This document shows positions 2,735 to 41,422 of a stretch of DNA of 43,408 nt, one piece after another. The translations under genes were made by a program, and so were the position numbers. The notes under the pieces are model-generated. The model searched no databases. It saw nothing but the letters and a program-made list of their open reading frames with translations, and was not told the DNA's origin. The stretch spans positions 1 to 43,408 of the forward strand of contig JADYZV010000120.1 in NCBI GenBank assembly GCA_020852965.1, in the 5' to 3' direction. Within the stretch, counting starts at the first letter, position 1. Every line of letters starts with the position of its first letter. The stretch is from Pirellulaceae bacterium (lineage in GTDB: Bacteria > Planctomycetota > Planctomycetia > Pirellulales > Pirellulaceae).

Positions 2735-4204
2735 ATGACTAAATACTTGTATCGAGCAATCATGTCCGGAACCTCGATATTGCCGAACTATCAAATATTC
2801 TCAGGGCTGGTACTAGTGCTCGTTGCATGCGCTATAACTACGGCCAATGCGTTCGCTCAGGAGCGGCACTCGACCAACTCGCGCTATTTCATCGATAATT
2901 CGGGCCGAGCAGTTTTTCTCTGTGGATCGCATACCTGGGCCAGCTTGCAGGACTGGGGAACGCCCACTCCCAAGTTCGACTACGCTTCCTACCTCGATCT
3001 CATGACCCGCCACAATCACAACTTCATGCGACTGTGGATTTGGGAATCGAGCGATGGCGGCACGTCGACACACAATTCGATAACGCCGTTACCTTGGTCA
3101 CGTACTGGAGAGGGATTGGCCGCCGATGGGCTACGCAAATTCGATCTCGATCGGTTCGACGAACGGTTCTTTGAGCGACTGCATCAACGCGTTCAAGCGG
3201 CGCGCGAGCGCAGGATTTACGTCTCCGTGATGCTCTTCCAGCAATACTTCAATTGGAAGACGCATCCCTTCGCAGTGATGAACAATTGCAATAATGTTGG
3301 TGCTAGTATTGCCCAAGACGGAGACGGCAGGGAAATCCATACGTTAAACCATCCTGACGTGCTGGTTCGTCAAGAAGCATTTGTTCTCAAAGTCGTAGAC
3401 ACGCTCAATGATCTTGACAACGTATTCTACGAAATCGGCAACGAGTTTGAGCGTCACACGCTGGCGTGGCAGTATCACATGATCGATTTCATCCACGAAT
3501 GCGAACGAGGGAAGCTACGCCAACATCCGGTAGGTATGACGTCGACGGGCAGGTCGGGCACCGCATCTCCGTTGATTTCCAACTCGGAACTATTTGCCAG
3601 CAACGCGGATTGGATCTCGCCACACAACGAACCTGGTCAGAACTATGTTTCAAATCCACCCGCCGCCACAGGCGAAAAGGTAGTCATCGTTGACACCGAT
3701 CATTTGGAAGGGATATTGGGAACGCGTGATCCGCAGGCATTTCGAATTTGGGTGTGGAAATGCTTCACGCGTGGTGTGCATCCAATCGTGATGGACGCGA
3801 TCCAAATTGGCATTCCAGGTTGGGAGAAGGAGGGCTGGAATCAACCCGATAACCCTGCGTTCGCAGCAGCCAGGGAAGCCATGGGCCAAGTGTGTAGCTA
3901 TTCCGAGCGACTCGAATTGGCGGCGTTGATACCTCACGAGGAATTGTCGTCGACCGGCTTTTGTTTGGCGAACCCCGGTCGTGAGTATATTGTTTTCAGT
4001 ACCATTGACGAACCGTTCATAGTAGACCTGTCTGCGACGCACGGTCAGTTTGAAATCGAATGGTTCAATCCACGCAACGGCGCGAGCATTCAACAAACGG
4101 CGATCGCTGGTGGTGCAGATCGCAATTTTACGTCCCCTTGGCGGCAACAAGAAACTGTCTTGCGACTTCTCCGCCTTGAAGATTCGTCCGCAGGCAGTCG
4201 CTGA
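2735..4204 (+). CDS. Secreted GH140-like (DUF4038-type) glycoside hydrolase
   Basis: 489-aa exported protein. After a signal peptide ending near ANAFAQ comes a TIM-barrel-type catalytic region with RYFIDNSGRAVFLCGSHTW, HNHNFMRLWIWE and FYEIGNE. The Asn-Glu pair (Glu about residue 237) is the expected clan GH-A acid/base. A C-terminal beta-sandwich (CLANPGREYIVF...FEIEWFNPRNG) resembles the 'putative collagen-binding' domain that ends DUF4038/GH140 proteins. It is clearly paralogous to the N-terminal half of the fusion protein at 16769-20680. Start: ATG 2735 gives a signal peptide with basic residues; ATG 2699 or 2762 are alternatives. It heads a same-strand run of carbohydrate-active genes. 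GH140 enzymes cleave apiosyl linkages, but specificity here is unproven. Confidence 0.8.
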   Translation: MTKYLYRAIMSGTSILPNYQIFSGLVLVLVACAITTANAFAQERHSTNSRYFIDNSGRAVFLCGSHTWASLQDWGTPTPKFDYASYLDLMTRHNHNFMRLWIWESSDGGTSTHNSITPLPWSRTGEGLAADGLRKFDLDRFDERFFERLHQRVQAARERRIYVSVMLFQQYFNWKTHPFAVMNNCNNVGASIAQDGDGREIHTLNHPDVLVRQEAFVLKVVDTLNDLDNVFYEIGNEFERHTLAWQYHMIDFIHECERGKLRQHPVGMTSTGRSGTASPLISNSELFASNADWISPHNEPGQNYVSNPPAATGEKVVIVDTDHLEGILGTRDPQAFRIWVWKCFTRGVHPIVMDAIQIGIPGWEKEGWNQPDNPAFAAAREAMGQVCSYSERLELAALIPHEELSSTGFCLANPGREYIVFSTIDEPFIVDLSATHGQFEIEWFNPRNGASIQQTAIAGGADRNFTSPWRQQETVLRLLRLEDSSAGSR

Positions 4205-12377: not shown

Positions 12378-12408
12378 CTCACAAAGCTCCGGTCAGTTAT
12401 TGAACAAG

Positions 12409-12477
12409 GCAGGCACAATCCGTGTGGTAGCTAACGGATTCGAATCGCTTACGGACGACACACGGGACTGTGCCTGC
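12409..12477 (-). promoter_or_regulatory. Long intercistronic hairpin between DUF1559 and lipoprotein genes
   Basis: Arm 12409-12426 (GCAGGCACAATCCGTGTG) is nearly complementary to arm 12459-12477 (CACACGGGACTGTGCCTGC), with one small bulge and a 32-nt loop. It lies between the stop of the DUF1559 gene and the start of the lipoprotein gene on the same strand. There is no T run, so an RNA-processing or stability element, or a dispersed palindrome, is more likely than an intrinsic terminator. One arm overlaps the motif shared with 1079-1105. Confidence 0.6.
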
Positions 12478-12495
12478 TTCTTTTGATTCTAGATG

Positions 12496-13488: not shown

Positions 13489-13646
13489 GTGAAACTCCCT
13501 GCAAAACGAAAGTGGAAAAGAAGACGGAACCGTCAGGAAACACGGCAAGAGAAAAGTCCGGTTTGGTAGTGCATTCGGCGCGAACGCGACGCTAAACAGG
13601 AACTCACTTCCTTCGCCATCCGAAGTTTAGGTGATAGCTAGTGGCG

Positions 13647-13702
13647 GAACAATCCACTTGTTGGAATAATGATTCCAATATTTAGCTGCGAACAATTCCA
13701 CT
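13647..13702. promoter_or_regulatory. Candidate operator between DUF1559 gene and XylR-type regulator
   Basis: The 384-bp divergent gap (13489-13872) contains a palindrome TTGGAAT-AATG-ATTCCAA at 13661-13678. It is flanked by two near-identical direct motifs, GAACAATCCACT at 13647-13658 and GAACAATTCCACT at 13690-13702. Direct repeats are typical of AraC-type binding and palindromes of LacI-type dimers. The position suits autoregulation by the adjacent regulator. No convincing -35/-10 pair was identified. Confidence 0.45.
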
Positions 13703-13872
13703 GCCGGCTCGCGACGGGGACTTAACGCCCCTAGCGCTTTGTCAAATAGATAAGCGTGGAATCCATTGTTAGCCGTTTGGGTGCTAGCTCCATTTATTTG
13801 TGCTCAACACAAAACTCGCGTTCCTGCCGGACAAGCCGACGAAGGGACGGAAGAAGGACAAACTGCAGTCCC

Positions 13873-15027
13873 ATGAAACATATACCACACGTAGCTCTAC
13901 TGATCGAGACGTCGCACGGTTATGGCAGGGCGCTGTTGCGCGGTGTCAATCTTTGGTTGAAGGAGAATGGTCGGTGGTCACTCTACTTCCGGCCCCAGGG
14001 GCTCGAAGCGCCGCCACCCAAATGGCTCAAGAATTGGCGCGGTGACGGAATACTGGTACGCATTGAGGACGCAAATATGGCCGAAGCCGTTTATCGTTCC
14101 GGCATTCCCGCTGTAAATCTGCGACTCGGATTTGACGAGTTTCCGTTGCCAATCGTTGGCATGGACAATTTGGCGCTGGGTGAGATGGCATTTCAACATC
14201 TGCGTGGTTGCGGTTTTGACCACTTCGCATTTTGCTGCAGCCCACGCGAGGGCTATCCATGGGTCGCCGATCGCTTGAACTCATTCCGCGAGGCGGTACA
14301 CAAATCGGGACGCGAGTGTCACATCTACGGTGGACCGACGCGGCGGCGCAAGCTGGATTGGGAAGCCGAGGAGAATCAGCTCGCCGAGTGGGTAGCGCGC
14401 CTACCGCATCCGGTCGGCATCATGGCCTGTACTGATGATCATGGTCTAGAGCTTCTTGAAGCTTGTCGCCGAGCGAATGTGCTGGTGCCTGAAGAAGTGG
14501 CAGTGATAGGTGTCGATAACGACGAATTTGTATGCACCATGTCCCATCCGCCGATGAGTAGCATTTCCTCCAACGCGGAACGGATCGGCTACGAGGCTGC
14601 CGCATTGTTGGATCGCATGATGGCCGGTGAGCCGGTCCCTGAAAAGCCACTACTACTGCCACCTGGAGGCGTGGTTACGCGAGAATCGACCGATATACTT
14701 GCGACCGAAGACCGCGAGATCGCTTTGGCCATTCGACATATCCGCGAACATGCCTGCGAAGGATTGCAGGTGTACGAGCTGACGCGGGTCACCAAGTTGT
14801 CGTACAAAAAACTGGAGCGACGTACGCGCGCGATCTTAGGTCGCTCCCCCAAAGAAGAGATCATCCGCGTGCAAATTGAGACCGCCAAAAAACTATTGGT
14901 GGAAACAAGCCTTTCGGCCGCCGCCATTTCCATCCGCTGCGGCTTTTCGGAGCCGAAGTATTTTAGTCAAGTATTTCGTGCCAAAGTCGGCATGCCTCCA
15001 GGTGCCTTTCGCCGATCGCACGCTTGA
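13873..15027 (+). CDS. XylR-type transcriptional regulator (LacI-like sensor + AraC HTH)
   Basis: 384-aa regulator. Residues about 1-275 are a periplasmic-binding/LacI-type sugar sensor (HVALLIETSHGYGRALLRGV at the N-terminus; PEEVAVIGVDNDEFVC and SSISSNAERIGYEAA late in the domain). Residues about 283-384 are an AraC-type double helix-turn-helix (IRHIREHACEGLQVYEL, ETSLSAAAISIRCGFSEPKYF, SQVFRAKVGMPPGAFR). This order is that of Escherichia coli XylR, and planctomycetes carry many such genes next to carbohydrate loci. The effector is unknown, probably a sugar. ATG 13873 is chosen because the sensor domain begins immediately; upstream codons from 13756 are not domain-like. It is the only recognisable regulator in the window and lies between the two catabolic blocks, so it is the best candidate for controlling them. 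Confidence 0.9.
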   Translation: MKHIPHVALLIETSHGYGRALLRGVNLWLKENGRWSLYFRPQGLEAPPPKWLKNWRGDGILVRIEDANMAEAVYRSGIPAVNLRLGFDEFPLPIVGMDNLALGEMAFQHLRGCGFDHFAFCCSPREGYPWVADRLNSFREAVHKSGRECHIYGGPTRRRKLDWEAEENQLAEWVARLPHPVGIMACTDDHGLELLEACRRANVLVPEEVAVIGVDNDEFVCTMSHPPMSSISSNAERIGYEAAALLDRMMAGEPVPEKPLLLPPGGVVTRESTDILATEDREIALAIRHIREHACEGLQVYELTRVTKLSYKKLERRTRAILGRSPKEEIIRVQIETAKKLLVETSLSAAAISIRCGFSEPKYFSQVFRAKVGMPPGAFRRSHA

Positions 15028-15123: not shown

Positions 15124-16731
15124 TCAATCTGCATTCGCTTTCTGAATCAAGTCCTCCCAAACTCGTTTTGCCTCGAAGTGTGGTCTGAGGACTTCGGCAA
15201 GTTTCTCCTGGTCTTTCAATGTCGACCGCAAATGTTGGATGCGATCATTGGTCCAGTCCCGGAAGAACGTCGCGCTGGCTATCGAGATGCTCGCCTTGTC
15301 CTGGCCCACTTCAACGTAGAATGGCGCGCTCGATGCGAAACGAAAGGTATCTGTGACATCTGTCACCGCACGAACGAGAAACCAGCCACTCTTTGTAAAT
15401 GAAACCGTCAAGTTTCCGTTGAAATCAGCGGAATTGTCTACCTTTAGCTTTTCGGTCACTGCACCGTCGCGAACAATCTCAATCGCAGACACAGGGTCAA
15501 GCGACATCAACCGAACGTCGATCTGGATTTCGGTTGGTCGGCCATCGAGGGAGCGGAAGACCGCCCCAGGCAACTCACCATTGCCTGTCACTAGCAACAG
15601 GGGGCCATTGGTGACGAAGCTGCGACCAACCTTCAAACTGGCCCACCATCTGTCCCAACTGAGTTCACCGTCGACGTGGGCATAAATGCGGTTGTATCCA
15701 ACGGGATTCGGAAGTACGCCCGATGCGCTACCCGCCGAGGGTGGAATGCGAAAACCACAGTTCAGAACATGGTAATAGATCTCCTGTGTCCATTGGCCAT
15801 TGCCGTGCGGTGGCGGCAAACGTTTTTCATCGCGGGCTTTACCCCACGCTTCCCCTGGGTACATCTGCCGACGATACATGTGGTTGTTGGCGATTCCAAT
15901 TGAATCAATCTTGCCGCTGGCAATCCAGGTCGGGGCGTCCCACCAAAATGGCTTCTCTACATCGATCCAGACTTTTTCATCCATCCTCCTCGCTTCGTCA
16001 GCGAAGCGTAACGGCGAGGGAAATTCTTGCTCAGCTTTGGCGATCGCCAGTGGTTCAGCCAAGTGAAAGTACAGCAGGGCACCACCGCCACGTTCATCCT
16101 CACCCGCCATCACGTCAACGAGTCGATTCCCGTCAAAACTCTTCACCGCAGTTCGCGGAAGCTCACGGTCTGTCCACTGATTGTGTTGATTCCACCAAGT
16201 AATCAATGGGCCAACGTGCAGATCCTCGGCCATCATCAACAACTCAATATCGGCGATTGACCGGTGAATGTGCAAGTCGCCCGAATACCAGCCTAGTTTC
16301 GCCAGTTCGGTGAATCGTTCGAGTTGTAAACTCAACTTGCGAGCCACCTTCAGATCAATGTCGCCGCGCAATCGTTCATGTTCGTGGCCACGTTCAATTT
16401 CGTAGCGATACTTGCCCGTTGGTATTCGCAGTGTTGCCTGTCCGTCGCAGACAAAGTGATCCCACCATGCGGGATAGCCAGTTGGCAAGACGGGCTTTTC
16501 GTTAGCGTCGAAGAGATGGATACGACACGGAAGAGGTTTGCCAGCAGCGTCATTGACGGCGATGTGCAGTTCGACCGACTCGCCTCCAACTTCGATTGGG
16601 CCGTGATCGAGCGGACTAGGCTTGTCCGTTACGACGATCCCATCCTGTCCGCAAGCGAGAAAACTGCCCAAAGCGATGTTGATCCCTAGGGCTAAGCTCG
16701 CAGTGCTTGTACCAAAGCAGTATAGGTTCAT
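15124..16731 (-). CDS. Secreted CehA/McbA-type metallohydrolase
   Basis: 535-aa exported protein. After a signal segment (residues about 5-28), a beta-sandwich domain (about 45-140) precedes a PHP-like metal-dependent domain beginning WYSGDLHIHRS, with the metal motif DLHIH at 152-156 and MAGEDERGG later. This matches CehA/McbA family metallohydrolases, named for carbamate hydrolases but mostly of unknown natural substrate. The ATG at 16731 is used because GGAG lies seven bases upstream; ATG 16735-16737 is only one base from that site. It is the last gene of the five-gene minus-strand operon, 37 bp after the glycosidase-cytochrome fusion. Confidence 0.8.
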   Translation of the reverse strand: MNLYCFGTSTASLALGINIALGSFLACGQDGIVVTDKPSPLDHGPIEVGGESVELHIAVNDAAGKPLPCRIHLFDANEKPVLPTGYPAWWDHFVCDGQATLRIPTGKYRYEIERGHEHERLRGDIDLKVARKLSLQLERFTELAKLGWYSGDLHIHRSIADIELLMMAEDLHVGPLITWWNQHNQWTDRELPRTAVKSFDGNRLVDVMAGEDERGGGALLYFHLAEPLAIAKAEQEFPSPLRFADEARRMDEKVWIDVEKPFWWDAPTWIASGKIDSIGIANNHMYRRQMYPGEAWGKARDEKRLPPPHGNGQWTQEIYYHVLNCGFRIPPSAGSASGVLPNPVGYNRIYAHVDGELSWDRWWASLKVGRSFVTNGPLLLVTGNGELPGAVFRSLDGRPTEIQIDVRLMSLDPVSAIEIVRDGAVTEKLKVDNSADFNGNLTVSFTKSGWFLVRAVTDVTDTFRFASSAPFYVEVGQDKASISIASATFFRDWTNDRIQHLRSTLKDQEKLAEVLRPHFEAKRVWEDLIQKANAD

Positions 16732-16768
16732 TCTCATTCTCCAATCGGTAGCTTGGCTACGATGCGCG

Positions 16769-19700
16769 TTAATTCGAATTCAGAAACGCCAGCAAATCTC
16801 GCAGCTCACCATCCGTGAGCGAATTCGCCAACTCGTTCGGCATGAGCGAGGACTTCGATGCCTTTCGTTCCACGATATCGGCTAAATCAAATGTGCGTTG
16901 TTTGCCGGTAAGATCAAGGTAGATTTCGTCGTCCGCAGAACTGAGCAAAATGCCCGTGAAAACAGTATCATCTTCAAGTAGCAGAATCGTAGGATAGAAC
17001 TCCGGAGCGACTTCGCGAGACGGTTCGAGTATCGAACGCAATATCGCATTTCGATCGCCTTGGCGCGCGATGAGACTCAGATCGGGACCGATCCCATTGA
17101 CGTTACCGCGGCCGCTATGCCGGTGGCAGGTGGCACATTGGGCTACGGTCGAATGGAAGATGCGGCGACCGGTTTCGACGTTCGGTTTACCAGGCAGACT
17201 ATCGAGGCGATTGAGCCATGCGGCGGTGTCGTCGAATGCTGGACGACCAGCGCTGATCGAGGCTGCATCCATTGCAGCTTTTACCAATGTTTCAGATTCT
17301 GGATATTGATGGCCCAGCTTGTCCAGCGACTTCCGAGCCGCCGCGTCAAGAGGTGCCTGGCGCAGCGCGCGCAGGGCCTCCTCGCGCAGGGCTACGGTAT
17401 CGTGACCAGCAAAACTCAGCAGCAGCGCGAGATGATCTGAATTGGTCGAGCCAGCGAGACCAGCAATCGCTTCGGCTCGCAGATCGATAGCGTAGGTTTC
17501 CGAGTCGGCAATTTCAGCCAGAATTTGGTTGGCCTCGTCAGTGTTTCTTGACGCCAAGTTGCGAACGACTTCAAGAGAAAGAACGGGATCGGCCATCGCC
17601 AGAAGTTCGCGGAGCAACGACACAGTGATCGTAGGGTGCGATGTCGGAGCGAGTCGCAGCGCAAAACCCTTCAAGCGCGCGGGGGTCGCTGAATTCGTTA
17701 GATACCCCAGCAGCATTTCGTCATTCGCGATGCCCGAGCTGGGTTGGCCGCGCAAAGTATTCCTGGTGGCGAGCGCGGCTTCGAACAATCGATAATCGAG
17801 ATCGGGCTGTATCAATAAGTGTTCGACATCGGCGATAAAGCTGGTGAATACGGCATCGGCAATCCAGCGCAGGCACTCGAATCGCACCTCGGGGTCGGTT
17901 TCTCCAAGTAGCAGGCGCACCCATTTCTCTTCATTGAAATCTACTCGGCGCAGTGCTACGAGCGCCCATACGCGGTCGCAGTCAGCCAACGCTTGAACCG
18001 AATGGGGCGTCCACGAGGAACTTTCACGCGCCAGCGCCGTTAGCGCCGCGTCTGACAAATACTTATCCTCCCCTCGCGCGTGTTCGAACAGTTGCGTTGG
18101 GCTCAGCTTGACCCGGCCCTCACGCAGATCTTTCGCAAGCTGTGCCGATTCGTTTAGCGGATCCCAAGCCGGTTGGACCCACGTAGCCGCGGCTCGATCG
18201 ATCTCTAGTTTCCATAATCGCCCGTGGCCGTGGACAGGGTACGAACTGAGTACCCAGTCGGTTAAATAGAATGATCCATCAGGCCCCGGCACCAGGAATG
18301 AGGGACGGAAGTAGTCACCACCACGCAGCAATTCCACCCGCTCGGAGATGTAGCCGGCCCCGTGTCGTACAAGTGGAAAGTAGTCGAGGCAATGACTGCT
18401 CCAGGACGGCACCATCACCCCGCCCCCGAGTTCGACGATGGCGCAAGGTGCTTCACTCGACGGATGAATCATCCCCAACGTTCCACGCAGCTCGCCATTC
18501 CATGCGACAAAGGGATGCACCGGCGCGGGGCCATAGGCCCGCTGATAGCCATAGTCTGCCCCCTCGATGACGTTAAGCAGTCGACACGGCGGGTGGCTAC
18601 CAGCATCGTTGTCAACGGCGAACATCTCGCCGCCTTTGCGCACCAGCAGTCCGAATGGATTCCAGAAACCTCGGGCGACTCTGCATAGTCCAGAGCCTTC
18701 GGCATCGCAGTGGAACACACCTCCTTCGCCTCGACCAGAGAGCTTGGCACCATCCCGTCCAATGAGCGTCCAATTCACTGCCGCATTCGTTCCCGCAGAG
18801 AACAACAACTCACCACTGGGAAGCCACGCCATGCCAGACAAGCCGTTGTGCGGATAGTCCGCCTTGGTATCGAGTACCGCGATGTTCTCCTCGACATCTC
18901 CCGCACCGTCGCCATCGGTGTCCTTTACCCGCAGAATCCGGTCCCGTAGCGCCAGGTAGACCCAGCCGTCACGGCCAAGTATGAGGTTCATGGTCATGTC
19001 TGTCTTGTTGTAGAATATTCGGCGGTTCTTCCCGTCGCGGTCGAACACCAGTATCTCATCATGCTCGGGCCCATCGTAGTCTGCTGGACGGAAGTGCGTG
19101 TGGGATGCCACTAGCCAGATATTCCCTTTCTGATCCACATCGAGGCCCGTTGGCGTCACCAAATCTGGCTGCTCGGCCAGCAGGGTAAGTTTTACTCCCG
19201 GCTGCAGGATCTGGATCTGCGGCGGCAATTCGTCGGTCACTTTGAGATACAGAACCGCAGGTCCCGAGAAGGGTGCGGTGAATGACTGGTTCCCTCCAGC
19301 GGCCACGACGGAACCAGTGGACGCGCTAGAACTTGTCGTCGGGTTGAACCACTCGAAAGCATAGCTCCCCGCCGTCAGTGTTACCGAGAATTCTCCTGTT
19401 TCCGGCTGATAGACCAGATATTCCTGACCGGGATTTGCGAGGCAATACTTAGTTGAAGCGAGATCCAGGGAGGGTATCATTTCTGCCAACTCAATCCGTT
19501 TAGCGAACCCGCGCGTCGCACCCAGCGCCTGCCGCGCGCCTTCCCACTGGTCCGACCGCCCCTTGCCGAGAAGGAGATGTTCGTAGGGATCCATGAAGAG
19601 CGGGTTGTACCCGCGCAAGAAGCTTTTCCACACCCAAGCTGCGTCGCCGCCGACGCCCCACAAGTGATCCGTGTCAAGCAGAATCACTTTTCTGCCATCA

Positions 19701-20680
19701 CTCACCGGTGGATTGTACTGGTAGTCGAACTTATCGGGATTGGGCGAAATCCAGTCCGCTGGGCTGTTGAGCAGAATCTCGGAGTCATCGCCGCCGCCGC
19801 CACCTTGCGAGGTCATCCCCACCGGGTGTTGCAGGGGCTTTTTCGCTTCATAATCCTCTATCAAACGGATCATGTGGTATTGCCAGTCTTGCGTGCTGCT
19901 GGCGGGATTGAGTAGACGCGCCTCATTGGAGATCTCATATAGGACATTGTCCAGATCGTTGACGGTGTCGATGACTTGGCGCACATAGGCCTCCTGCGCG
20001 GCGGTGACCTCGGGCATCGACATCGTCTGGATCTCCAAGCCCTTGCCATCGCCATTGGGATCGCCGTTGATCCCCTGTATGTTGTTCTCCAGGCGGAAGG
20101 GGTGGCCGTTCCAGGAAGTGGAATCGAAGCTCAGCTTCCAGCCTTCGAACAGCATCACCGAGACGTAGATCCCGCGCTGCTTGGCCGCTTTGACCCGCTC
20201 CCGCAAGCGCTCGAAGTACGCCGGGTCGAACCTTTCGAGATCGAACTTCGGCTTGCCGTCGAGGGCCAAGCCGGGGCCGGTGCGCTGCCAAGGCATTGGC
20301 GCGACATGATAGAGCGCTCCTGTGTCGACCCACGCCAGTGCAGACTGAGTGTCCCATATCGTCGAGTCCCAGGCCCACAGCCGGATGAAGTTGTGATCGT
20401 GCCGCTGGAGGAAGTCGAGATAGGCGTCGAAGTCGAACGCCTTTGGCGGATCGTCGCGTCCCATGTCCAGCAGATTGTTCCAAGTGTGCGAGCCCGTCAA
20501 ATAGACGGTCCGTATGGACCCGTCCGGACCCTGCGTCCCATGAGTGAAATACCGCGGGTTGGTCGGATGTACTCGGAGAGGCCCCATGCCTTCATCTCTC
20601 GCAGGCTGCTGTCCTGTAACTGTCGCTATCGTCGTCAATACGCACACGACAACTAGCAGAGTATGCAAAAGTGATTTCAT
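16769..20680 (-). CDS. GH140-like glycosidase fused to PVC-type haem-binding dehydrogenase
   Basis: 1303-aa secreted protein joining two normally separate proteins. Residues about 1-24: signal peptide. About 30-430: DUF4038/GH140-like barrel with GSHTWNNLLDM, HDHNFIRLWAWDS and LYEISNE (Glu253 the likely acid/base). About 435-535: collagen-binding-like beta domain. About 545-860: NHL/PQQ-dehydrogenase-like propeller (TPTGLDVDQKGNIWLVASHTH). About 870-1120: HEAT-like helices. About 1160-1303: planctomycete haem-binding domain with CATCH at 1182-1186 and SLMP as probable distal Met. Start: ATG 20680 has AGGA upstream and a signal peptide; the same frame is open to a GTG at 20845 that overlaps the previous stop, so a 55-residue longer form is possible. 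The domain joint was read from one continuous frame. Confidence 0.85.
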   Translation of the reverse strand: MKSLLHTLLVVVCVLTTIATVTGQQPARDEGMGPLRVHPTNPRYFTHGTQGPDGSIRTVYLTGSHTWNNLLDMGRDDPPKAFDFDAYLDFLQRHDHNFIRLWAWDSTIWDTQSALAWVDTGALYHVAPMPWQRTGPGLALDGKPKFDLERFDPAYFERLRERVKAAKQRGIYVSVMLFEGWKLSFDSTSWNGHPFRLENNIQGINGDPNGDGKGLEIQTMSMPEVTAAQEAYVRQVIDTVNDLDNVLYEISNEARLLNPASSTQDWQYHMIRLIEDYEAKKPLQHPVGMTSQGGGGGDDSEILLNSPADWISPNPDKFDYQYNPPVSDGRKVILLDTDHLWGVGGDAAWVWKSFLRGYNPLFMDPYEHLLLGKGRSDQWEGARQALGATRGFAKRIELAEMIPSLDLASTKYCLANPGQEYLVYQPETGEFSVTLTAGSYAFEWFNPTTSSSASTGSVVAAGGNQSFTAPFSGPAVLYLKVTDELPPQIQILQPGVKLTLLAEQPDLVTPTGLDVDQKGNIWLVASHTHFRPADYDGPEHDEILVFDRDGKNRRIFYNKTDMTMNLILGRDGWVYLALRDRILRVKDTDGDGAGDVEENIAVLDTKADYPHNGLSGMAWLPSGELLFSAGTNAAVNWTLIGRDGAKLSGRGEGGVFHCDAEGSGLCRVARGFWNPFGLLVRKGGEMFAVDNDAGSHPPCRLLNVIEGADYGYQRAYGPAPVHPFVAWNGELRGTLGMIHPSSEAPCAIVELGGGVMVPSWSSHCLDYFPLVRHGAGYISERVELLRGGDYFRPSFLVPGPDGSFYLTDWVLSSYPVHGHGRLWKLEIDRAAATWVQPAWDPLNESAQLAKDLREGRVKLSPTQLFEHARGEDKYLSDAALTALARESSSWTPHSVQALADCDRVWALVALRRVDFNEEKWVRLLLGETDPEVRFECLRWIADAVFTSFIADVEHLLIQPDLDYRLFEAALATRNTLRGQPSSGIANDEMLLGYLTNSATPARLKGFALRLAPTSHPTITVSLLRELLAMADPVLSLEVVRNLASRNTDEANQILAEIADSETYAIDLRAEAIAGLAGSTNSDHLALLLSFAGHDTVALREEALRALRQAPLDAAARKSLDKLGHQYPESETLVKAAMDAASISAGRPAFDDTAAWLNRLDSLPGKPNVETGRRIFHSTVAQCATCHRHSGRGNVNGIGPDLSLIARQGDRNAILRSILEPSREVAPEFYPTILLLEDDTVFTGILLSSADDEIYLDLTGKQRTFDLADIVERKASKSSLMPNELANSLTDGELRDLLAFLNSN

Positions 20681-20841: not shown

Positions 20842-23814
20842 TCACTTCTTACTAAACAGGTATTCCAACAAGTCAGCAACTTCCTGCGTTGTGCAATCTG
20901 CTAGCTGACCTTCGGGCATGAGCGAAAGTTGCGCGGGGCGCAATTGTTCAACGTCATCGGCAACGATGGTAAACAGATTGTCCTGCGCGTCGCGCAATGT
21001 CACTTGCTTGTCGTCACGCTGAACGAGTACGCCGTTGACTAGGCGGCCGTCAAGGAGCAGCGCAGCATACGTTGCGTACTTGGGCTCGATTCGTCGCGAT
21101 GGTGCGAGGATGCTCTCCAACAAATCTTCGCGCGAACGAAGTTTGCCGATTGTGGAAAGGTCGGGGCCAACGTTCGCTCCTCGGTTGTCGATCTTGTGGC
21201 AACTAGCGCAGTTGATCGTCTTGGACCAAAACAATCGCTCGCCCCGCGCCGCATCCCCCTGCATCGTCAAAATCTCATGGGGCCGTGGATTCGCACCGAG
21301 TTTGCGTTCGCCCCGTTCGCCTGGCGGAAGGTAGCCGTCGAACAGTTCGCGCGTAAGGCTGGGTGGTAGATTGGCTACTTCAGCCAGCAGTTTTTCTCGA
21401 ACAATCGACGGCAACTCAGCCCGTCCAATTTGTCGTGCAACGATCATCGACGATGTAGAATTGGCCAACAAGGAACTCGCCGAGTTTAGATCCACATGAG
21501 GCTGCGCCGGCTGCGGCCCCATGCCGGAGATCCAGTCGTCGATGAGCTTCAATCCAACTTCGTCGGGGAGTTCCGATCCAAGATGCGGCATGCGGTCGCG
21601 ACCGAACTTCGCCATGCGGTAGTAGAGTGTGCTCGAATAGGGGTCACCGGCTTTAATGATACATGCAGCGGGCAGTCCAAAGTCACTGCGCGAAGGTCGC
21701 ACCCCAACGGCTTTTAATTCAACCAGTGCGCTCTGGAATTGCAGTTGCAGTGGCACTGCGCCACCACCCCCTTCACGATGGCAGTGACTACAGTTTACAT
21801 CCAGATAGGTTCGCGCACGATCGGAGACTGGCAAGCGGGAATCGGTTGGATCGGCCAACCGGCTTTCACTCTCTACCGATGCCTCGTCGAAGGGAGATAA
21901 TTGCTGACCGGATCGGTCCGCGCGGCGAATGAATCCCGATTCGGTGAGTGCGATCAGTTGATTGCGACCATCGGCTCCTGGGCCGTTCAATTGTTCCGGA
22001 CGAAATGCCAGCGCGGTTTCCGCCCAACCATTGTGGCACAGCAAGCACTGACTGCGGCTGTGGAACTGCCATAAGGGCTTCTGCTGCTCACCCGGCAGCT
22101 CTCGTTCAGCCCCATCGGCGGGAACAAGCTCTGCGTCTGTCTGATCGTCATTCCATGCGAACGAATAGCCTCGCCACTCAACACCGTCGAAGTGCAATAG
22201 CTGCGTTTCTATCCGCCGTCCACGCAATGAAATCGTCTTTAGAAGTGTGCTGTCCTTGGGGAAATGGACGCGAAAGCGATGCCAGTCCGTGATGCCTGGA
22301 ATCATCTTGCCTTCAGGGTAGAGCGTGGCCGATGTCAACTCCGGAAAGGCGGCCCAGTGCTCGGTCGTCGCACCATCCTGCCATTGCCGAACGATCGGTT
22401 GGAAGGGGACTACACCAACGGCTGGCGTATGGTCAGACACTGACGCGAAGAGCCCGGTTTGGGAGAGCTTTGTTGGAAATCCGGCGTTCTTCGCTCCTGC
22501 TTCGTTTCGCTCGAGCGTATGGATGGTGCCGTTGTCATAGTCGAGGAAGTACAGTTCACCCGCATTGTCCTGGCCGAAGCTGGAAATTCTCACGCTCGGC
22601 TTTGTGAGTTCGATCATCTCACGGACGCGATCGCCGTCAAAACGCGCTGCCCACATGCGACGCGATTCGAAGTCACCAAACACATAGGCACCCTGCAGTT
22701 CCGGAAACCGTTGACCGCGATAGACATAGCCCCCCGTAACGCTAGTGGCGACCGCATGAGGCAATTCGATCGAGGCAGTCAATATCGGCGTGGGACCGAC
22801 AAATTCTGGCTTAATAGGCTGCGGCCCTTCGGTGGCAGACCAACCGTAGTTGCCCCCTTTTGCAACGCGGTCGATCATCTCCCATAGCTCCCAGCCGACA
22901 TCGCCGACAAACAGGTCGCCGCTCGTCGCGTCGAAGCTCATGCGCCAAGGATTGCGAAAGCCATAAGCCCAAATTTCTGGCCTAGCATTCTTCATCGAGA
23001 CAAACGGATTGTCCGTTGGCACGGAATAAGACTTTCCTGGGTCACGATGATCCACGTCGATGCGCAGGATCGATGACAACAAATCAGAAAGATCCTGACC
23101 AGTGTTCAGTGGATCTGGCGGATTGGGGTTTCCGCTGTCGCCCGAGCTGATATACAGCATTCCGTCTGGGCCAAAGTGCAAGTCACCTCCATTGTGCCCG
23201 CCCTGTCGAAAGGTGAGCAAAATCTCTTCGCTCGCTGGATCGACACGCGGTGGCTCCGTTGCCGTGACTAAGAAGCGACTTATACGCGTCCCGTCGGCCA
23301 GATTGGCGTCTACGTTATTGCGCAGCGTATAGCAAATAAAGCACTGGCGGTTCTGTTCAAACTGCGGATGAAAGGCCAGTGAGTAAACTGCTTCGACTTC
23401 CTTGGCGCTGGGGAGTAAATGTAGCGACTTGATCTCGCTCCGCAGATCGAAGAATAATTCTGCCTCAGCGTCCGCTCGATTCGGGAACGAAACCAGCACG
23501 CCCGCTTGCTCACCAACGAAGATTCGATCCGTACCTGGAGCGCTGACGAAGAGCAGCGGGTGTTCGAGCTTGACATTCGCAAACGCGCGCACCGCTTGGA
23601 ATGCTGGCGGCGGATCGGGCGAGCCGACGACACGCGACGTGCCCCAGGGCTTGCGCGCTCCCAGCCCTATGGCTTCGTCGCGCACAGTAGGGCGCTGCGT
23701 CGAGGAGCTGACTCCTTCTTGACCTATCGAACTGAATCCAAAGGCAGTCAGCGCGACGACAGAAAACGATAGAAGACCGAGAAAAAACCGCCTGTGCTTA
23801 CTCGCCAGCTTCAT
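20842..23814 (-). CDS. PQQ-type sugar dehydrogenase with three c-type haem sites
   Basis: 990-aa exported protein. A basic start and hydrophobic segment (about 8-27) form the signal. Residues about 75-440 are a glucose/sorbosone-dehydrogenase propeller (HNGGDLHFGPDGMLYISSGD, WAYGFRNPWRMSFD, GDVGWELWEMID, KGGNYGW). A middle region carries CLLCH (590-594) and CSHCH (675-679), as in multihaem cytochrome proteins. The C-terminal haem-binding domain has CASCH (869-873), GPDLSTIGK and SLMPEG. It probably oxidises sugars outside the cytoplasm and passes electrons along its own haems. Start: ATG 23814 has GAGGCGAG directly upstream; an in-frame GTG at 23847 is rejected. It overlaps the preceding hydrolase gene by 17 bp, showing translational coupling. 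Confidence 0.85.
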   Translation of the reverse strand: MKLASKHRRFFLGLLSFSVVALTAFGFSSIGQEGVSSSTQRPTVRDEAIGLGARKPWGTSRVVGSPDPPPAFQAVRAFANVKLEHPLLFVSAPGTDRIFVGEQAGVLVSFPNRADAEAELFFDLRSEIKSLHLLPSAKEVEAVYSLAFHPQFEQNRQCFICYTLRNNVDANLADGTRISRFLVTATEPPRVDPASEEILLTFRQGGHNGGDLHFGPDGMLYISSGDSGNPNPPDPLNTGQDLSDLLSSILRIDVDHRDPGKSYSVPTDNPFVSMKNARPEIWAYGFRNPWRMSFDATSGDLFVGDVGWELWEMIDRVAKGGNYGWSATEGPQPIKPEFVGPTPILTASIELPHAVATSVTGGYVYRGQRFPELQGAYVFGDFESRRMWAARFDGDRVREMIELTKPSVRISSFGQDNAGELYFLDYDNGTIHTLERNEAGAKNAGFPTKLSQTGLFASVSDHTPAVGVVPFQPIVRQWQDGATTEHWAAFPELTSATLYPEGKMIPGITDWHRFRVHFPKDSTLLKTISLRGRRIETQLLHFDGVEWRGYSFAWNDDQTDAELVPADGAERELPGEQQKPLWQFHSRSQCLLCHNGWAETALAFRPEQLNGPGADGRNQLIALTESGFIRRADRSGQQLSPFDEASVESESRLADPTDSRLPVSDRARTYLDVNCSHCHREGGGGAVPLQLQFQSALVELKAVGVRPSRSDFGLPAACIIKAGDPYSSTLYYRMAKFGRDRMPHLGSELPDEVGLKLIDDWISGMGPQPAQPHVDLNSASSLLANSTSSMIVARQIGRAELPSIVREKLLAEVANLPPSLTRELFDGYLPPGERGERKLGANPRPHEILTMQGDAARGERLFWSKTINCASCHKIDNRGANVGPDLSTIGKLRSREDLLESILAPSRRIEPKYATYAALLLDGRLVNGVLVQRDDKQVTLRDAQDNLFTIVADDVEQLRPAQLSLMPEGQLADCTTQEVADLLEYLFSKK

Positions 23815-25033
23815 CGCTCGCCTCGTCGGAATCGATTTCACGCTCACGAAGCTTTGCCGCTAGCGTAGCCTTGGAAACGCGGTCGATCCAAGTGCCAGGG
23901 TACACGGTTCGCAGCTTCTCAAAGGCGGCGATCGCTTCTTTCGTTTTTCCAGCGGCCAGCAATGAATTCGCAGCCTTGAATTCTTCCTCGCCAACCGTCA
24001 ACATTCGAGCGAAGATGCGACCAGCCTCCTCACGACTCAATCCAACGGAGGGCAGTTTCTTTAAGCAGGGAGGATTCGACTCGACAAGGATCTGGTAGGC
24101 TTCTGGATTGCGCTCACGAAACAGCCGTGATCGCATGTCCTTTTGCTGGTTGGACGAATCGCCTCCAGCCCGTCCACCGCGAGGGTCGATGTCTGCAATG
24201 GCCAGCCCATCGACGCCCTCGGCTGTGGCGAGGATTTTGCCTCTGGGCGAAATGATCTGCGCGCCCGATCCGCGAAAGGCGACAGCCAAGTAGACGTGGT
24301 TTTCAGCAGCTCGAACACGCAGCGAGAGCATTTCGATATCGCCGTCCCCTATCGCTGCTCCGCCCATCGTCGGATGAAAGATGATATCGGCACCCTGCAA
24401 CGCCAAACAACGCGCGGTCTCAGGCATTACCAAGTCATAACAGATTGCCAAGCCGACGGTGCCCAGGTCGGGCGTGTCAAAAACAGGAAATGAATTGCCG
24501 CGTTGGCGACTGCCACTTTCAGACCAAGTTGGACAGGTCTTGTGATAGCGTCCGATCTCCATGCCGTCACGACCGAGGAAGAAGGCCGTGTTGTAGGTTC
24601 CTCCATCTGCCTCGATGTGATCGCTACAGACGATGAGGTACATGTTGTATTTGGCTGCGGCATGGCCCAAACGGTCAAGCATCCGGTGGACGGCGTCGGG
24701 CAATACCTGCTGGGCGAGCGGTTCATTCATGCCACACCAGTGGAGCAGCCCCAGCGTATCCTCTGGCAATGCCAACACATCACACTTCTGCTCGCCCGCC
24801 CTCTGGATGATCTTCTCCAGCGCATCGAGATTTTTGTCCACGGCCACAAAGAATTCGGACGCGTCCACGATGCGCCAGTCGATGGTGTGGCTCTGCGCCT
24901 GGCATGTCGCCACGCGAACAGTACTAGCTGCGGCTGCCGGTTCGTCAGCCGCAGACGGTGTTGCTGCAACGGCTAGCGCCAAGTAGAACATGCCGACTTG
25001 TATTGAAGGGCTCGTCATTAACCAAATCTTCAT
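23798..25033 (-). CDS. Exported carbon-nitrogen hydrolase (nitrilase superfamily)
   Basis: 411-aa protein with a signal-like N-terminus (about 1-30). The nitrilase-superfamily triad is complete: Glu91 in LALPEDTLG, Lys165 in RYHKTCPTW, and Cys198 in GLAICYDLVMPE. It hydrolyses a C-N bond (amide, carbamoyl or nitrile), but the substrate is unknown. An exported member is less common than cytoplasmic ones. The C-terminal about 80 residues (EEEFKAANSLLAAGKTKEAI) form a short TPR-like helical tail absent from minimal amidases. The start codon overlaps the stop of the heparinase-like gene (ATGA at 25030-25033), so translation is coupled. Amide-bearing sugars such as N-acetylated or amidated uronates would suit the context, but this is inference. 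Confidence 0.85.
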   Translation of the reverse strand: MKIWLMTSPSIQVGMFYLALAVAATPSAADEPAAAASTVRVATCQAQSHTIDWRIVDASEFFVAVDKNLDALEKIIQRAGEQKCDVLALPEDTLGLLHWCGMNEPLAQQVLPDAVHRMLDRLGHAAAKYNMYLIVCSDHIEADGGTYNTAFFLGRDGMEIGRYHKTCPTWSESGSRQRGNSFPVFDTPDLGTVGLAICYDLVMPETARCLALQGADIIFHPTMGGAAIGDGDIEMLSLRVRAAENHVYLAVAFRGSGAQIISPRGKILATAEGVDGLAIADIDPRGGRAGGDSSNQQKDMRSRLFRERNPEAYQILVESNPPCLKKLPSVGLSREEAGRIFARMLTVGEEEFKAANSLLAAGKTKEAIAAFEKLRTVYPGTWIDRVSKATLAAKLREREIDSDEASDEAGE

Positions 25034-26547
25034 TTCCAGATCTCCTCGGTATCGAAGCGCTGTGGGACGACGAGCGTCGTGAGCGGCTGATCCAGCTTGA
25101 TTTTGCCATCACCGGAGTGAAGTTGTATATGGGCACCCACCGAACCACCAACCTTCGCTGTCCGAGATTGGATTGGTAGTAGCGTCTGACAGAATAAACG
25201 CCCTTGCTGGTGAGTTACTGTAGCGAGGTGCTGGTCGATCGTAGGTTCGTCGATCGTGTGCAGCAGCCAGCGTTTTTCCAAAGCGGCGTCGGTGGATGTC
25301 ACTCGATCGAAAATGACAATGCAACCTGGCCTCACATGCAAAAACTGTCGCGTAAAGAGCGAAACTTTGTCGCTGCTGTGCGCTTTGGTCGCATCGCCGG
25401 CGGCGCAGGTAAAGTCTGCAGCGGTTTCGAAGGCAATAATACCATCCAGCCCGAGCGGTTCGCGAATCAGCGCTCCGTATTGGGCCGAATCTAAACTCCC
25501 GTCCGACTGCAATGTACGCACCCAACTTCCGCCGATCTGTCCACCGTCATTCCCCGGACCCAAGGCAAAAACCTCGCCAGGTTGAGTTAATGTAATCGTG
25601 TTGTGTGCGACGCTCCGCGTGAAATAGGATGAGTAGTGTGACGAGTCGCGATCGTCCGACCCCGAATCAATGGCCAGAGAACCGGCGCGGTCTATGACAA
25701 ACGAATTTTCATCAGCGTGATAATGGGTGCCAGGGGTGTAGGCTCTGCCAGACTTAAAGATGGCTACCACATCATCGTTATTCCAACCGGATCGCGACAC
25801 GACCTGCCCCACTCCCTCGAGATGTCGTCCCAGCGGCATCGATTGTGGATACACAAAATCGGTGGCCACTGGAATCTCAGGGTCGTACCACAAGACAGCC
25901 TTCCAAAGCTGAGCAACCGACCAGTGGTCGGGGCCCGCCATGGCCACGTCTATAGTCTCGCGCGCTTGGCGCTGCGCGAAACGATCGAGTTGATGTTTGG
26001 CTTCCTCGAGAAATACCGCATCCTGCGACAGGCTCCAAGCGATTCCAAGCGAAATCCAATGCTGCGCAACTGCAAAGGCATTGGTGTTGTCTCGAATTGC
26101 ATCGAAACCCGCTCGACGTCTGAAGTTGACGATGTAGTATTCATAAATGTGTTTGATCTCGGGATCACTCTCGATTCGTTTGCGAGTCAGCATTTCCCAC
26201 TCAGACCATTGCCCCGGGAGATTGCGACCAGGCGGCGAACCATCGTGAGCCGTACGGACAAAGAACTTCAGCTCACCCTGACCTTCAAACTGCAGTTCGC
26301 GAAACAGGGGTGACAGGCAACATGTATTCCAAGGCGCCGCGAGAAAGCTGCCCTTCCCCGAAGCCGTCCCAGCATGCGCTGTCCATTGCCTATAGTGTCC
26401 CCAGTCGAATTGGACTCCCTCCGAACTTTCAATCTGATCGGGTGCGCACAGATCGTAAACATGCCGTGAATCGTACTCAAACTCATCGGCATAGAGCTGT
26501 GCGGAAAGTACAATTAAAGCAATCGTCGGGATGCAATACCTTGTCAT
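25030..26547 (-). CDS. Short heparinase II/III-like polysaccharide lyase
   Basis: 505-aa exported protein (signal MTRYCIPTIALIVLSAQLYA). Residues about 215-500 match the C-terminal beta-sheet domain of heparinase II/III-like lyases: GVGQVVSRSGWNNDDVVAIF, THYHADENSFVIDRAGSLAIDSG, SVAHNTITL and RPGCIVIFDRV. The preceding alpha/alpha-toroid is much shorter than usual: only about 130 residues (75-205) separate the N-terminal part from that domain, whereas typical members are 600-750 aa. The toroid usually supplies catalytic Asn/His residues, so activity is doubtful, or this is a compact subtype. It is the first gene of the minus-strand operon, which points to acidic polysaccharide as substrate. 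Confidence 0.75.
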   Translation of the reverse strand: MTRYCIPTIALIVLSAQLYADEFEYDSRHVYDLCAPDQIESSEGVQFDWGHYRQWTAHAGTASGKGSFLAAPWNTCCLSPLFRELQFEGQGELKFFVRTAHDGSPPGRNLPGQWSEWEMLTRKRIESDPEIKHIYEYYIVNFRRRAGFDAIRDNTNAFAVAQHWISLGIAWSLSQDAVFLEEAKHQLDRFAQRQARETIDVAMAGPDHWSVAQLWKAVLWYDPEIPVATDFVYPQSMPLGRHLEGVGQVVSRSGWNNDDVVAIFKSGRAYTPGTHYHADENSFVIDRAGSLAIDSGSDDRDSSHYSSYFTRSVAHNTITLTQPGEVFALGPGNDGGQIGGSWVRTLQSDGSLDSAQYGALIREPLGLDGIIAFETAADFTCAAGDATKAHSSDKVSLFTRQFLHVRPGCIVIFDRVTSTDAALEKRWLLHTIDEPTIDQHLATVTHQQGRLFCQTLLPIQSRTAKVGGSVGAHIQLHSGDGKIKLDQPLTTLVVPQRFDTEEIWK

Positions 26548-40699: not shown

Positions 40700-41422
40700 A
40701 TGCGATCGTTGATTTTCGTGCTTGCCTGTTGCACATTGTTCACCTGCTGCAGCCCTAGCTCTGCACAAGACAAAACCGAGAAGAAATCGGCCGCAGTCGG
40801 AGATGGCTTTACTGCCATCTTCAATGGTTCCGACCTAACTGGCTGGAAGGGAAATGCGGATCTGTGGAGTGTTGAAGATGGCAGCATTACCGGACGTACC
40901 ACGGCGGAAGCTCCTCTCAAGTTCAATACGTTTTTAATCTACGAAGTAGGTCCGGTGGCTGACTTCGAATTGCGGCTCGACTATAAAATCAAAGCAGGCA
41001 ATTCTGGTATTCAATATCGCAGCCAAATTGTTGAAGCGGACAAGTTCATTGTGGGTGGCTATCAAGCCGACATCGACGCGACATCAAAATACACGGGCAT
41101 CAACTACGAAGAACGCGGACGTGGGATTTTAGCAGAGCGCGGGCAGCGCGTGACGATCGCTGCGGACGGTGCCAAGTCTGCCGAAGACTTCGCCGACCGC
41201 GAGGAACTAGCCAAGGAGTTCGACCCAGCAGGTTGGAATCACTATCGAGTTGTGGCCAAGGGGAATAGGCTGAGCCACTACATCAACGATGTGCTGATGT
41301 CCGAAGTGATCGACAACCAAGAGAGCGAAGCAGAGAAGTCAGGCGTATTGGCTTTTCAAGTCCACCAAGGTCCACCCATGGTGGTCCAGTTCAAAAATAT
41401 CCGTATAAAAACGCTCGACTGA
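40700..41422 (+). CDS. DUF1080 / 3-keto-disaccharide hydrolase-like protein
   Basis: 240-aa exported protein. The signal region (MRSLIFVLACCTLFTCCSPS) is Cys-rich and may be a lipoprotein signal. The mature domain is the DUF1080 jelly-roll: FTAIFNGSDLTGWKGNADLWSVEDGSITG, FELRLDYKIKAGNSGIQYRS and a final GVLAFQVHQGPPMVVQFKNI. DUF1080 members have been tied to 3-keto-disaccharide hydrolysis and are numerous in planctomycetes. GAAGGA seven bases before ATG supports the start. It stands alone, followed by a 31-nt palindrome array. Confidence 0.9.
   Translation: MRSLIFVLACCTLFTCCSPSSAQDKTEKKSAAVGDGFTAIFNGSDLTGWKGNADLWSVEDGSITGRTTAEAPLKFNTFLIYEVGPVADFELRLDYKIKAGNSGIQYRSQIVEADKFIVGGYQADIDATSKYTGINYEERGRGILAERGQRVTIAADGAKSAEDFADREELAKEFDPAGWNHYRVVAKGNRLSHYINDVLMSEVIDNQESEAEKSGVLAFQVHQGPPMVVQFKNIRIKTLD

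What the first reader, a model, noticed from the sequence alone, without database searches (positions are those of the whole stretch)
16769..20680. Glycosidase fused to a haem-binding dehydrogenase in one secreted polypeptide
One frame joins a GH140-like barrel plus beta domain with a propeller, HEAT helices and a CATCH haem domain. The N-terminal part is paralogous to the stand-alone enzyme at 2735-4204. A hydrolase joined to a sugar oxidase with its own cytochrome would let the freed sugar be oxidised at the site of cleavage. I do not know of this fusion as a described enzyme.
Basis: partly seen in the sequence, partly recalled or inferred. Interest (0 to 1): 0.75.

Follow-up and report, generated by a model that had tools for sequence, protein, structure and literature searches.

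The report
Glycosidase fused to haem-bound propeller enzyme
A bacterium carries one secreted protein that joins a sugar-cutting enzyme to a haem-carrying propeller protein whose job is still disputed; this exact pairing was seen only here, but some relatives join the same kind of propeller protein to other sugar-cutting enzymes, so the pairing is a useful clue to what these haem proteins do.

Summary
The fusion is in the sequence. One minus-strand frame (ATG 20680 to stop 16769; 1303 aa) holds a signal peptide, a GH140-like barrel with beta domain, a GSDH-type propeller, HEAT-like helices and a CATCH cytochrome domain. The joint (about 19240) lies at the domain boundary: the glycosidase ends as its relatives do, and the haem half starts after the signal peptide its relatives carry. 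Surveys of 241, 396 and 392 overlapping genomes list no other match spanning both halves. The nearest glycosidase relative carries a GH10 xylanase at that point, so this looks like a module swap. The wider architecture recurs: relatives of the haem half carry C-terminal PF06439, a 3-keto-glycoside hydrolase family (9 of 9 long frames examined in one genus), or agarase-like barrels (two genomes). "Sugar oxidase" is unproven. The fold is nearest PQQ sugar dehydrogenases and a catalytic-type His is kept, but the PQQ-binding Arg is Trp by motif in all 55 aligned rows, no pqqE passes its cut-off, and a protein with the same three domains was published as a beta-galactosidase. Best reading: a secreted two-step glycan enzyme, cleavage plus probable oxidation feeding electrons to haem. 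New variant of a known kind.

The parts
16769..20680 (-). the fusion gene, 1303 aa plus stop (longest frame reaches 20845)
20612..20680 (-). signal peptide (residues 56-78, ending ...TVTG before QQPARD)
   Evidence: sequence; similar start in L082; cleavage point inferred
19238..20611 (-). GH140-like barrel plus C-terminal beta domain (residues 79-536)
   Evidence: DUF6298; alignment A1 of 18 rows; model pLDDT 88.6, Foldseek top hit GH140 8t9w
19922..19924 (-). Glu308 of YEIxNE after the fourth barrel strand, invariant in 18 of 18 rows; candidate acid/base
   Evidence: role and strand number inferred
19667..19675 (-). Asp391 and Asp393 of DTDH after the seventh barrel strand, invariant in 18 of 18 rows; candidate nucleophile
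   Evidence: role and strand number inferred
19211..19240 (-). joint between the two halves (residues 536-545)
   Evidence: joint DNA found once in the genome
18212..19207 (-). six-blade propeller, TIGR02604/DUF7133 (residues 547-878)
18848..18850 (-). His666 of PHNGLSG, invariant in 55 of 55 rows; matches the catalytic His of GSDH enzymes by motif
   Evidence: role inferred from PMC6881789 passages
18662..18664 (-). Trp728 of WNPFG, invariant in 55 of 55 rows, where GSDH enzymes have the PQQ-binding Arg
   Evidence: motif correspondence inferred
17252..18151 (-). HEAT-type helical region (residues 899-1198)
   Evidence: HEAT_2 below cut-off; helical in the model
16775..17182 (-). c-type cytochrome domain TIGR02603 (residues 1222-1357)
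17123..17137 (-). CATCH haem-binding motif (residues 1237-1241)
   Evidence: invariant C, C, H
16841..16843 (-). Met1335 of SLMP, the likely axial haem ligand
   Evidence: aligned with the Met of Kustd1711 (7zs0) that is Cys/His in the M292C/M292H mutants 7zs1/7zs2
20842..23847 (-). upstream gene on the same strand: GSDH propeller, SO2930-type diheme region (below cut-off) and the same haem domain
15124..16737 (-). downstream gene, 31 bp away: CehA/McbA-type metallohydrolase
23798..25033 (-). same-strand neighbour, CN hydrolase (overlaps the upstream gene)
25030..26547 (-). same-strand neighbour, Hepar_II_III_C-like
2735..4204 (+). stand-alone paralogue of the glycosidase half
40700..41422 (+). 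stand-alone PF06439 (3-keto-disaccharide hydrolase)

Best explanation
It is a real secreted two-enzyme protein made by a module swap. A secreted GH140-like glycosidase gene gained, at its C-terminal domain boundary, the complete mature part of a PVC-type haem protein (GSDH-fold propeller, HEAT-like helices, mono-haem cytochrome c), which lost its own signal peptide. Most likely mechanism (inferred): the barrel splits a sugar off a plant-type polysaccharide; the propeller then binds the freed sugar or new chain end and oxidises one ring hydroxyl; the electrons pass to the attached haem and on to the respiratory chain. Position C3 is my guess, from the 3-keto-glycoside hydrolase domains fused to relatives of the haem half. 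Shown: the gene, the domains, both predicted folds, conserved residues, the differing C-terminal partners. Inferred: substrate, both catalytic activities, cofactor, electron route, benefit of the joining.
For: Open frame and domains. Glycosidase half: fold nearest GH140, Glu and Asp positions invariant in 18 of 18 rows, 1 of 79 near-invariant columns departed from. Haem half: fold nearest PQQ sugar dehydrogenases, CxxCH and axial-type Met kept. Module swap: the glycosidase half is sister (support 1.0) to L082, which has a near-identical signal peptide and a GH10 xylanase after the same boundary; stand-alone haem relatives begin with a signal peptide just before the joint position. The same haem clade is joined to glycan-cleaving domains elsewhere: PF06439 in 9 of 9 long frames examined in genus g82, agarase-like barrels in L048 (one-contig genome) and L083. 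The upstream gene is a second GSDH-type haem protein. PF06439 proteins are proposed to act after a periplasmic sugar 3-dehydrogenase (PMC9007349, passages).
Against: The exact fusion is seen in one genome only. Trp sits at the PQQ-binding Arg position, by motif, in all 55 aligned rows; no pqqE above cut-off (none of its 14 control genomes passes either, so no positive control). A protein with the same three domains was published as a beta-galactosidase (PMC5342196). The fused haem half departs from the family at 6 of 116 near-invariant columns, among them E686 to T (51 of 54 other rows E) and P748 to A (54 of 54 other rows P), while the 15 rows 57-67% identical to it depart at 0-2.
Confidence: 0.45

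Rival explanations
1. The haem half is itself a glycosidase, of the Lac161_ORF7 kind, so the protein is a double glycosidase with a haem domain of another use (docking, sensing, or an internal oxidation-elimination cycle).
For: Lac161_ORF7 (AGW45552), with TIGR02604, HEAT_2 and Cytochrom_C, was purified from E. coli and released glucose from lactose with Km 1.8 mM and kcat 13.2 per second (PMC5342196). A planctomycete genome paper counts 18 homologues of it among proteins distantly related to glycosidases (PMC5352709, passages). By motif the PQQ Arg is absent and pqqE was not found above cut-off.
Against: One report; the assay read glucose, and no haem or redox test appears in the passages I saw. 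Its printed kcat/Km (7.3 x 10^4) does not follow from the printed kcat and Km (which give 7.3 x 10^3). The fold's nearest solved relatives are dehydrogenases. I could not fetch AGW45552 to compare it with this protein.
Confidence: 0.27
2. The fusion is a recent accident: the glycosidase works and the haem half is a passenger or binding scaffold that is losing function.
For: Singleton in the surveys; departures at 6 of 116 near-invariant columns in the haem half, among them E686, P748, G1293 and G1338, against 1 of 79 in the glycosidase half, where the 15 haem-half rows at 57-67% identity depart at 0-2.
Against: 1303 codons without a stop; the haem motif, axial-type Met, His666, Trp728 and Asn729 are all kept; some rows at greater distance depart as often or more, though whether those work is unknown. 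The consensus left out the window row but not the others, which leans against the window a little.
Confidence: 0.17
3. The haem half oxidises something other than a sugar and the two halves share only secretion.
For: Cofactor and substrate of TIGR02604 proteins are not settled; this genome has many of them (44 match rows; 24 open frames over the cut-off by my count).
Against: Fusions of this clade to PF06439 and agarase-like domains point to carbohydrates.
Confidence: 0.07
4. Assembly chimera of two genes.
For: Singleton; the genome is in 199 contigs; reads not available.
Against: In frame, at the domain boundary, without the second signal peptide; the joint's 181 bp are found once in the genome; G+C is even across it; the genome's next listed match to the haem half is only 43% identical.
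Confidence: 0.04

Closest known systems
GH140 apiosidase (8t9w)
   Same: Foldseek's first hit for the glycosidase half (E 3.5e-15, TM 0.62 by query and 0.65 by target): barrel plus C-terminal beta domain; weak profile hit in its C-terminal domain (E 0.0057).
   Different: 13% identity; the fused half does not reach Pfam Apiosidase (PF13204) at E 0.01, only DUF6298. Apiose as substrate is not shown.
Lac161_ORF7 (AGW45552), published beta-galactosidase of a verrucomicrobial soil clone
   Same: TIGR02604 plus HEAT_2 plus Cytochrom_C, as in the haem half.
   Different: No N-terminal glycosidase barrel reported; sequence not available here for alignment.
PQQ sugar dehydrogenases with GSDH fold (sGDH, Asd 3das, fungal AA12 CcPDH)
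   Same: Six-blade propeller fold; catalytic-type His in a matching motif; AA12 CcPDH also carries a cytochrome domain (PMC6881789, passages).
   Different: Arg of the RN motif is Trp; PF07995 not hit by the fusion; a CxxCH cytochrome domain instead of the haem b domain of CcPDH, and helices between.
Kuenenia Kustd1711 diheme cytochrome (7zs0)
   Same: Its second haem domain matches the cytochrome domain, including the axial-type Met.
   Different: The 316-residue chain has no propeller or glycosidase match to this protein.
   Same: 69% identical glycosidase half, near-identical signal peptide, same boundary.
   Different: GH10 xylanase instead of the haem protein.
L048 and L083: haem protein with C-terminal agarase-like barrel (L083 also PF06439)
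   Same: A glycosidase-like barrel and a TIGR02604/TIGR02603 haem protein in one frame.
   Different: Other end, other glycosidase family, haem half only about 33-34% identical.

Membership tests
PVC-type haem proteins (TIGR02604 + TIGR02603) | TIGR02604 above cut-off | tested here: met
   175.9 bits against 122.2
PVC-type haem proteins (TIGR02604 + TIGR02603) | TIGR02603 domain with CxxCH | tested here: met
   83.9 bits against 68.15; C1237, C1240, H1241
PVC-type haem proteins (TIGR02604 + TIGR02603) | axial Met of the haem domain | tested here: met
   M1335 aligned with the mutated Met of 7zs0-7zs2; haem binding itself not testable
GH140 apiosidases | PF13204 Apiosidase profile | tested here: not met
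   no hit at E 0.01 for the fusion; the stand-alone paralogue reaches 27.2 against 26.5
GH140 apiosidases | fold: barrel plus C-terminal beta domain | tested here: met
   8t9w first in Foldseek with a predicted model
GH140 apiosidases | catalytic acid pair at the family's positions | tested here: inconclusive
   E308 and D391/D393 invariant in 18 of 18 rows but not mapped residue by residue on 8t9w
GH140 apiosidases | activity on apiosides | not testable with these tools
   needs the enzyme
PQQ-dependent GSDH/AA12 dehydrogenases | six-blade GSDH propeller fold | tested here: met
   2ism, 3das, 6jt5, 1c9u first with a predicted model
PQQ-dependent GSDH/AA12 dehydrogenases | PF07995 profile | tested here: not met
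   not hit by the fusion at E 0.01; hit by the upstream gene at 1.7e-38
PQQ-dependent GSDH/AA12 dehydrogenases | PQQ-binding Arg before Asn | tested here: not met
   W728-N729 in 55 of 55 rows, by motif; the upstream gene has RNP
PQQ-dependent GSDH/AA12 dehydrogenases | catalytic His | tested here: inconclusive
   H666 invariant and in a like motif; correspondence by motif only
Lac161_ORF7-type beta-galactosidases | TIGR02604 + HEAT_2 + Cytochrom_C | tested here: met
   against PMC5342196 section 15; HEAT_2 is below its cut-off here
Lac161_ORF7-type beta-galactosidases | sequence relation to AGW45552 | not tested
   I had no copy of the record

The most novel reading that the evidence does not exclude
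PVC-type haem proteins of this clade are respiratory glycan 3-dehydrogenases that work with cleaving modules (GH140-like, agarase-like, 3-keto-glycoside hydrolase) in single secreted polypeptides: the bacteria couple polysaccharide cleavage directly to electron transfer outside the cytoplasm, with a cofactor bound without the usual PQQ arginine. The window protein is the GH140-like version.
Probability: 0.22. Interest if true: 0.78.

Novelty: new variant of a known kind. Interest (0 to 1): 0.5.

Why it matters
This genome has 44 TIGR02604 match rows (24 open frames over the cut-off by my count) and 25 PF06439 matches, and what TIGR02604 proteins do is disputed: named as dehydrogenases, one published as a beta-galactosidase. 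Natural fusions to cleaving modules name candidate substrates (xylan-like from the L082 kin, agar-like from L048/L083; both inferred) and give a single protein in which cleavage and oxidation can be assayed together.

Tried and rejected
Assembly chimera: considered, judged unlikely, not excluded without reads. The C149 match that seemed to cross the joint (residues 52-597) is not a second copy: its C-terminal part is another domain without a Pfam hit. Long frames around haem-half relatives were checked for a hidden glycosidase half: the extra length in the long frames of genus g82 is C-terminal PF06439, and the N-terminal stretches of L077-L081 gave no BLAST match to the query's first half at E 1e-20 (one search used 1e-10 for L031-L058). 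Alignment A3 put the glycosidase rows on the propeller; a test of anchoring rows did not cure it; I dropped it and folded the halves apart, so the relative placing of the two active sites is unknown. Two haem-half rows (L019, L056) of the 57 found were left out of A2; rows under 80% coverage were not taken. Neighbours of stand-alone haem relatives: I looked by eye at ORF lists of ten loci and compared the window's genes by BLAST; no shared glycosidase partner emerged, but no family search of those neighbours was run. Rfam and tRNA searches of the window found nothing. The upstream GSDH gene aligned with A2 only outside the propeller, chiefly in the haem domain, so the His and Arg positions rest on motifs. 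The translation was in a wrong frame and was not used. In the surveys only about 2 candidates per genome were scored under the strict thresholds, so a weak fusion could be missed. Paper searches were seen as listings; of their papers I opened those named in the report and PMC9765024 (passages), which added nothing on fusions.
Full report
Observation. The reading frame is real and lies on the minus strand. The frame from GTG 20845 to the stop at 16769 is 1358 aa; the likely start is ATG 20680, after AGGA, opening a signal peptide. A relative, L082, starts with nearly the same peptide. I keep the 1358-frame numbers; subtract 55 for ATG numbering. The bases 16769-20680 then code 1303 aa and the stop.

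Domains. Pfam: DUF6298 184-343 (31.9 bits, cut-off 28.1), DUF7133 547-749, HEAT_2 1121-1172 (below its cut-off), Cytochrom_C 1224-1267. NCBIfam: TIGR02604 550-878 and TIGR02603 1222-1357, both above cut-off. The glycosidase half (79-536), modelled with 18 rows, has mean pLDDT 88.6; Foldseek's first three hits are chains of GH140 apiosidase 8t9w (best E 3.5e-15, TM 0.62/0.65, 13% identity), and GH5 mannanase ManDH5 and putative glycosidase 4n0r fill the next ranks. The haem half (536-1358), modelled with 55 rows, has mean pLDDT 90.0; its first hits are 2ism, 3das (PQQ-bound aldose sugar dehydrogenase), 6jt5 (AA12) and 1c9u (sGDH), with the Kuenenia diheme Kustd1711 lower down. The helical stretch in the model fits HEAT repeats.

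Conserved residues. In 18 of 18 glycosidase rows Glu308 (YEIxNE) and Asp391/Asp393 (DTDH) are invariant; in the model they follow what I count as barrel strands 4 and 7, so they are my candidates for the catalytic pair. In 55 of 55 haem-half rows (window included) His666 (PHNGL) and Trp728-Asn729 (WNPFG) are invariant, as are Cys1237, Cys1240, His1241 and Met1335. Met1335 aligns with the Met of 7zs0 that is Cys and His in the mutants 7zs1 and 7zs2 (M292). In AA12 and sGDH the quinone is held by an Arg-Asn pair and a catalytic His (PMC6881789, passages). By motif, His666 fits the catalytic His but Trp728 sits where the Arg should be; the upstream gene, which hits PF07995, has RNP. This correspondence was not checked on superposed structures. 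pqqE: best 69.6 bits against a cut-off of 381 in this genome; none of the 14 control genomes passes either, so there is no positive control, and PQQ can be taken up from outside (PMC6881789, passage on E. coli).

Does the fused haem half keep the family's pattern? It departs at 6 of 116 columns that at least 90% of the other 54 rows share: E686 to T, P748 to A, L1145 to F, a gap at F1229, G1293 to D and G1338 to E. The glycosidase half departs at 1 of 79. The 15 rows that are 57-67% identical to the window depart at 0-2; rows at about 30% identity depart at up to 21. The fusion may be altering or losing function in the haem half; this counts against my reading.

The joint. Stand-alone haem relatives begin with a signal peptide and reach the aligned part about where the fusion's joint lies (L032 and L033; others). 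The glycosidase half ends where its relatives end. The joint's 181 bp are found once in the genome, and G+C is even across it. The genome's next listed match to the haem half is only 43% identical, so the fused copy seems to be its only close one.

Survey. Whole-protein searches of 60 relatives, 15 genus, 241 family, 396 order and 392 phylum genomes (overlapping sets that include the window's own genome) list no other match that covers both halves. In some searches, 43 distinct glycosidase-half matches other than the window are listed; the largest open frame among them is 968 aa. A scan of named genomes gave 18 loci, none spanning; 17 match the haem half and one (L069) the glycosidase half (which says that records of the window's own genome or very near it may be left out). 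Few candidates per genome were scored under the strict thresholds, and the list was capped, so weak or distant fusions may be missed.

Origin. A tree of the glycosidase half puts the fusion with L082 (support 1.0). L082 is 69% identical in this half and continues into a GH10 xylanase (8.3e-70). So the same secreted module carries GH10 in one lineage and the haem protein in another: a swap at one boundary. The haem half groups with assemblies labelled Limisphaerales and Akkermansia, L059 and L068 (66-67% identity; support 0.84), rather than with same-genus G013 (57%) or G009 (48%); deeper supports there are low, so transfer is only suggested.

The kind of fusion recurs. I fetched haem-half relatives of genus g82 chiefly because their frames were long. 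Of ten (L042-L047, L049-L052), nine have frames of 1181-1294 aa and all nine end in PF06439; the tenth, L052 (940 aa), has no C-terminal extension. Other g82 matches have frames of 855-1026 aa and were not examined. L048 (1416 aa, a one-contig genome of the same family) and L083 (1720 aa, same class, another family) have agarase-like barrels at the C-terminus (phmmer 6xj9 2.7e-9; 4bq4 4.8e-11); L083 also has PF06439 before the barrel. In a search of the 241 family genomes with L048, no other listed match covered haem half and barrel together. L039, from the window's own genus, is 80% identical to L083 over its 1045 residues and is cut by its contig end. Just downstream of L048, on the same strand, a frame (10597-12720) carries PF06439 plus sulfatase. 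In the window's genome C148 has PF06439 and TIGR02604 in one 1447-aa frame. I take these as the strongest evidence that this haem clade works on glycans.

What the haem half does. PF06439 proteins are proposed 3-keto-glycoside hydrolases that act after a periplasmic sugar 3-dehydrogenase (PMC9007349, passages), so repeated fusion to PF06439 suggests that the propeller makes 3-keto sugars. Against this stands PMC5342196 (abstract passage, section 15 and further passages): Lac161_ORF7, with TIGR02604, HEAT_2 and Cytochrom_C, purified from E. coli, released glucose from lactose and was called a new beta-galactosidase. PMC5352709 (passages) counts 18 homologues of it in a planctomycete among proteins distantly related to glycosidases; PMC7823827 (passages) only cites it. 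PMC5673643 (passages) links DUF1080 (PF06439) to xanthan use in a planctomycete. I had no copy of AGW45552.

Neighbours. The fusion sits in a run of five minus-strand genes: Hepar_II_III_C-like (25030-26547), CN hydrolase (23798-25033), GSDH-diheme-haem (20842-23847), the fusion, and a CehA/McbA metallohydrolase (15124-16737). Facing them, on the plus strand, is a regulator with HTH_18 and sugar-binding-type domains and a PBP1_XylR hit below its cut-off (13756-15027). A stand-alone PF06439 lies at 40700-41422. With the GH10 partner of L082 this leans to a xylan-type substrate; that is inference.

Print. A search for TIGR02604, TIGR02603, Piru_Ver_Nterm, 'PVC-type heme-binding' and 'membrane-bound dehydrogenase domain' found one paper, PMC5342196. 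A search for Planctomycetes, glycoside hydrolase, heme-binding, 'fused to' and dehydrogenase together found none. The library holds only open-licence papers.

Verdict. The interpretation as hydrolase plus oxidase is plausible but unproven, with a serious published rival. Exact pairing: a singleton as far as seen. Wider architecture: recurrent, and not found described by the searches. New variant of a known kind; interest 0.5.

Noticed in passing
L048:6337-10584 (+) and L083:4439-9595 (-): PVC-type haem protein fused to a C-terminal agarase-like barrel, in a one-contig genome of the same family and in another family of the class; L083 also has PF06439 in between.
   Followed up: partly
L042-L047, L049-L051: Haem-half relatives in genus g82 carry a C-terminal PF06439 domain in 9 of 9 long frames examined.
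   Followed up: yes
window 20842-23847 (-): Upstream gene joins a GSDH propeller, an SO2930-type diheme region and a TIGR02603 haem domain; its propeller keeps the RNP motif that the fusion lacks.
   Followed up: partly
L082:5196-7700 (+): Near-identical signal peptide and the same glycosidase module as the fusion, but followed by a GH10 xylanase.
   Followed up: yes
L031:5874-8342 (-): Paralogue in the same genome: glycosidase module plus a C-terminal domain of about 290 aa without a Pfam hit.
   Followed up: no
window 7782-8750 (+) and L087:4035-6680 (+): Gene with weak polysaccharide-lyase-14/Cip1-like hits (below cut-off); it is 29% identical to a stretch of the L087 frame that also holds the glycosidase module.
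   Followed up: no
G000:C148 around 12029-13807: PF06439 and TIGR02604 matches in one 1447-aa frame of the window's own genome.
   Followed up: no
window 27697-30042 (+): FAD-dependent oxidoreductase with a Golvesin C-terminal domain.
   Followed up: no
window 16769-19240 (-): Fused haem half departs from near-invariant family residues (E686 to T, P748 to A) that nearly all or all other rows keep.
   Followed up: partly
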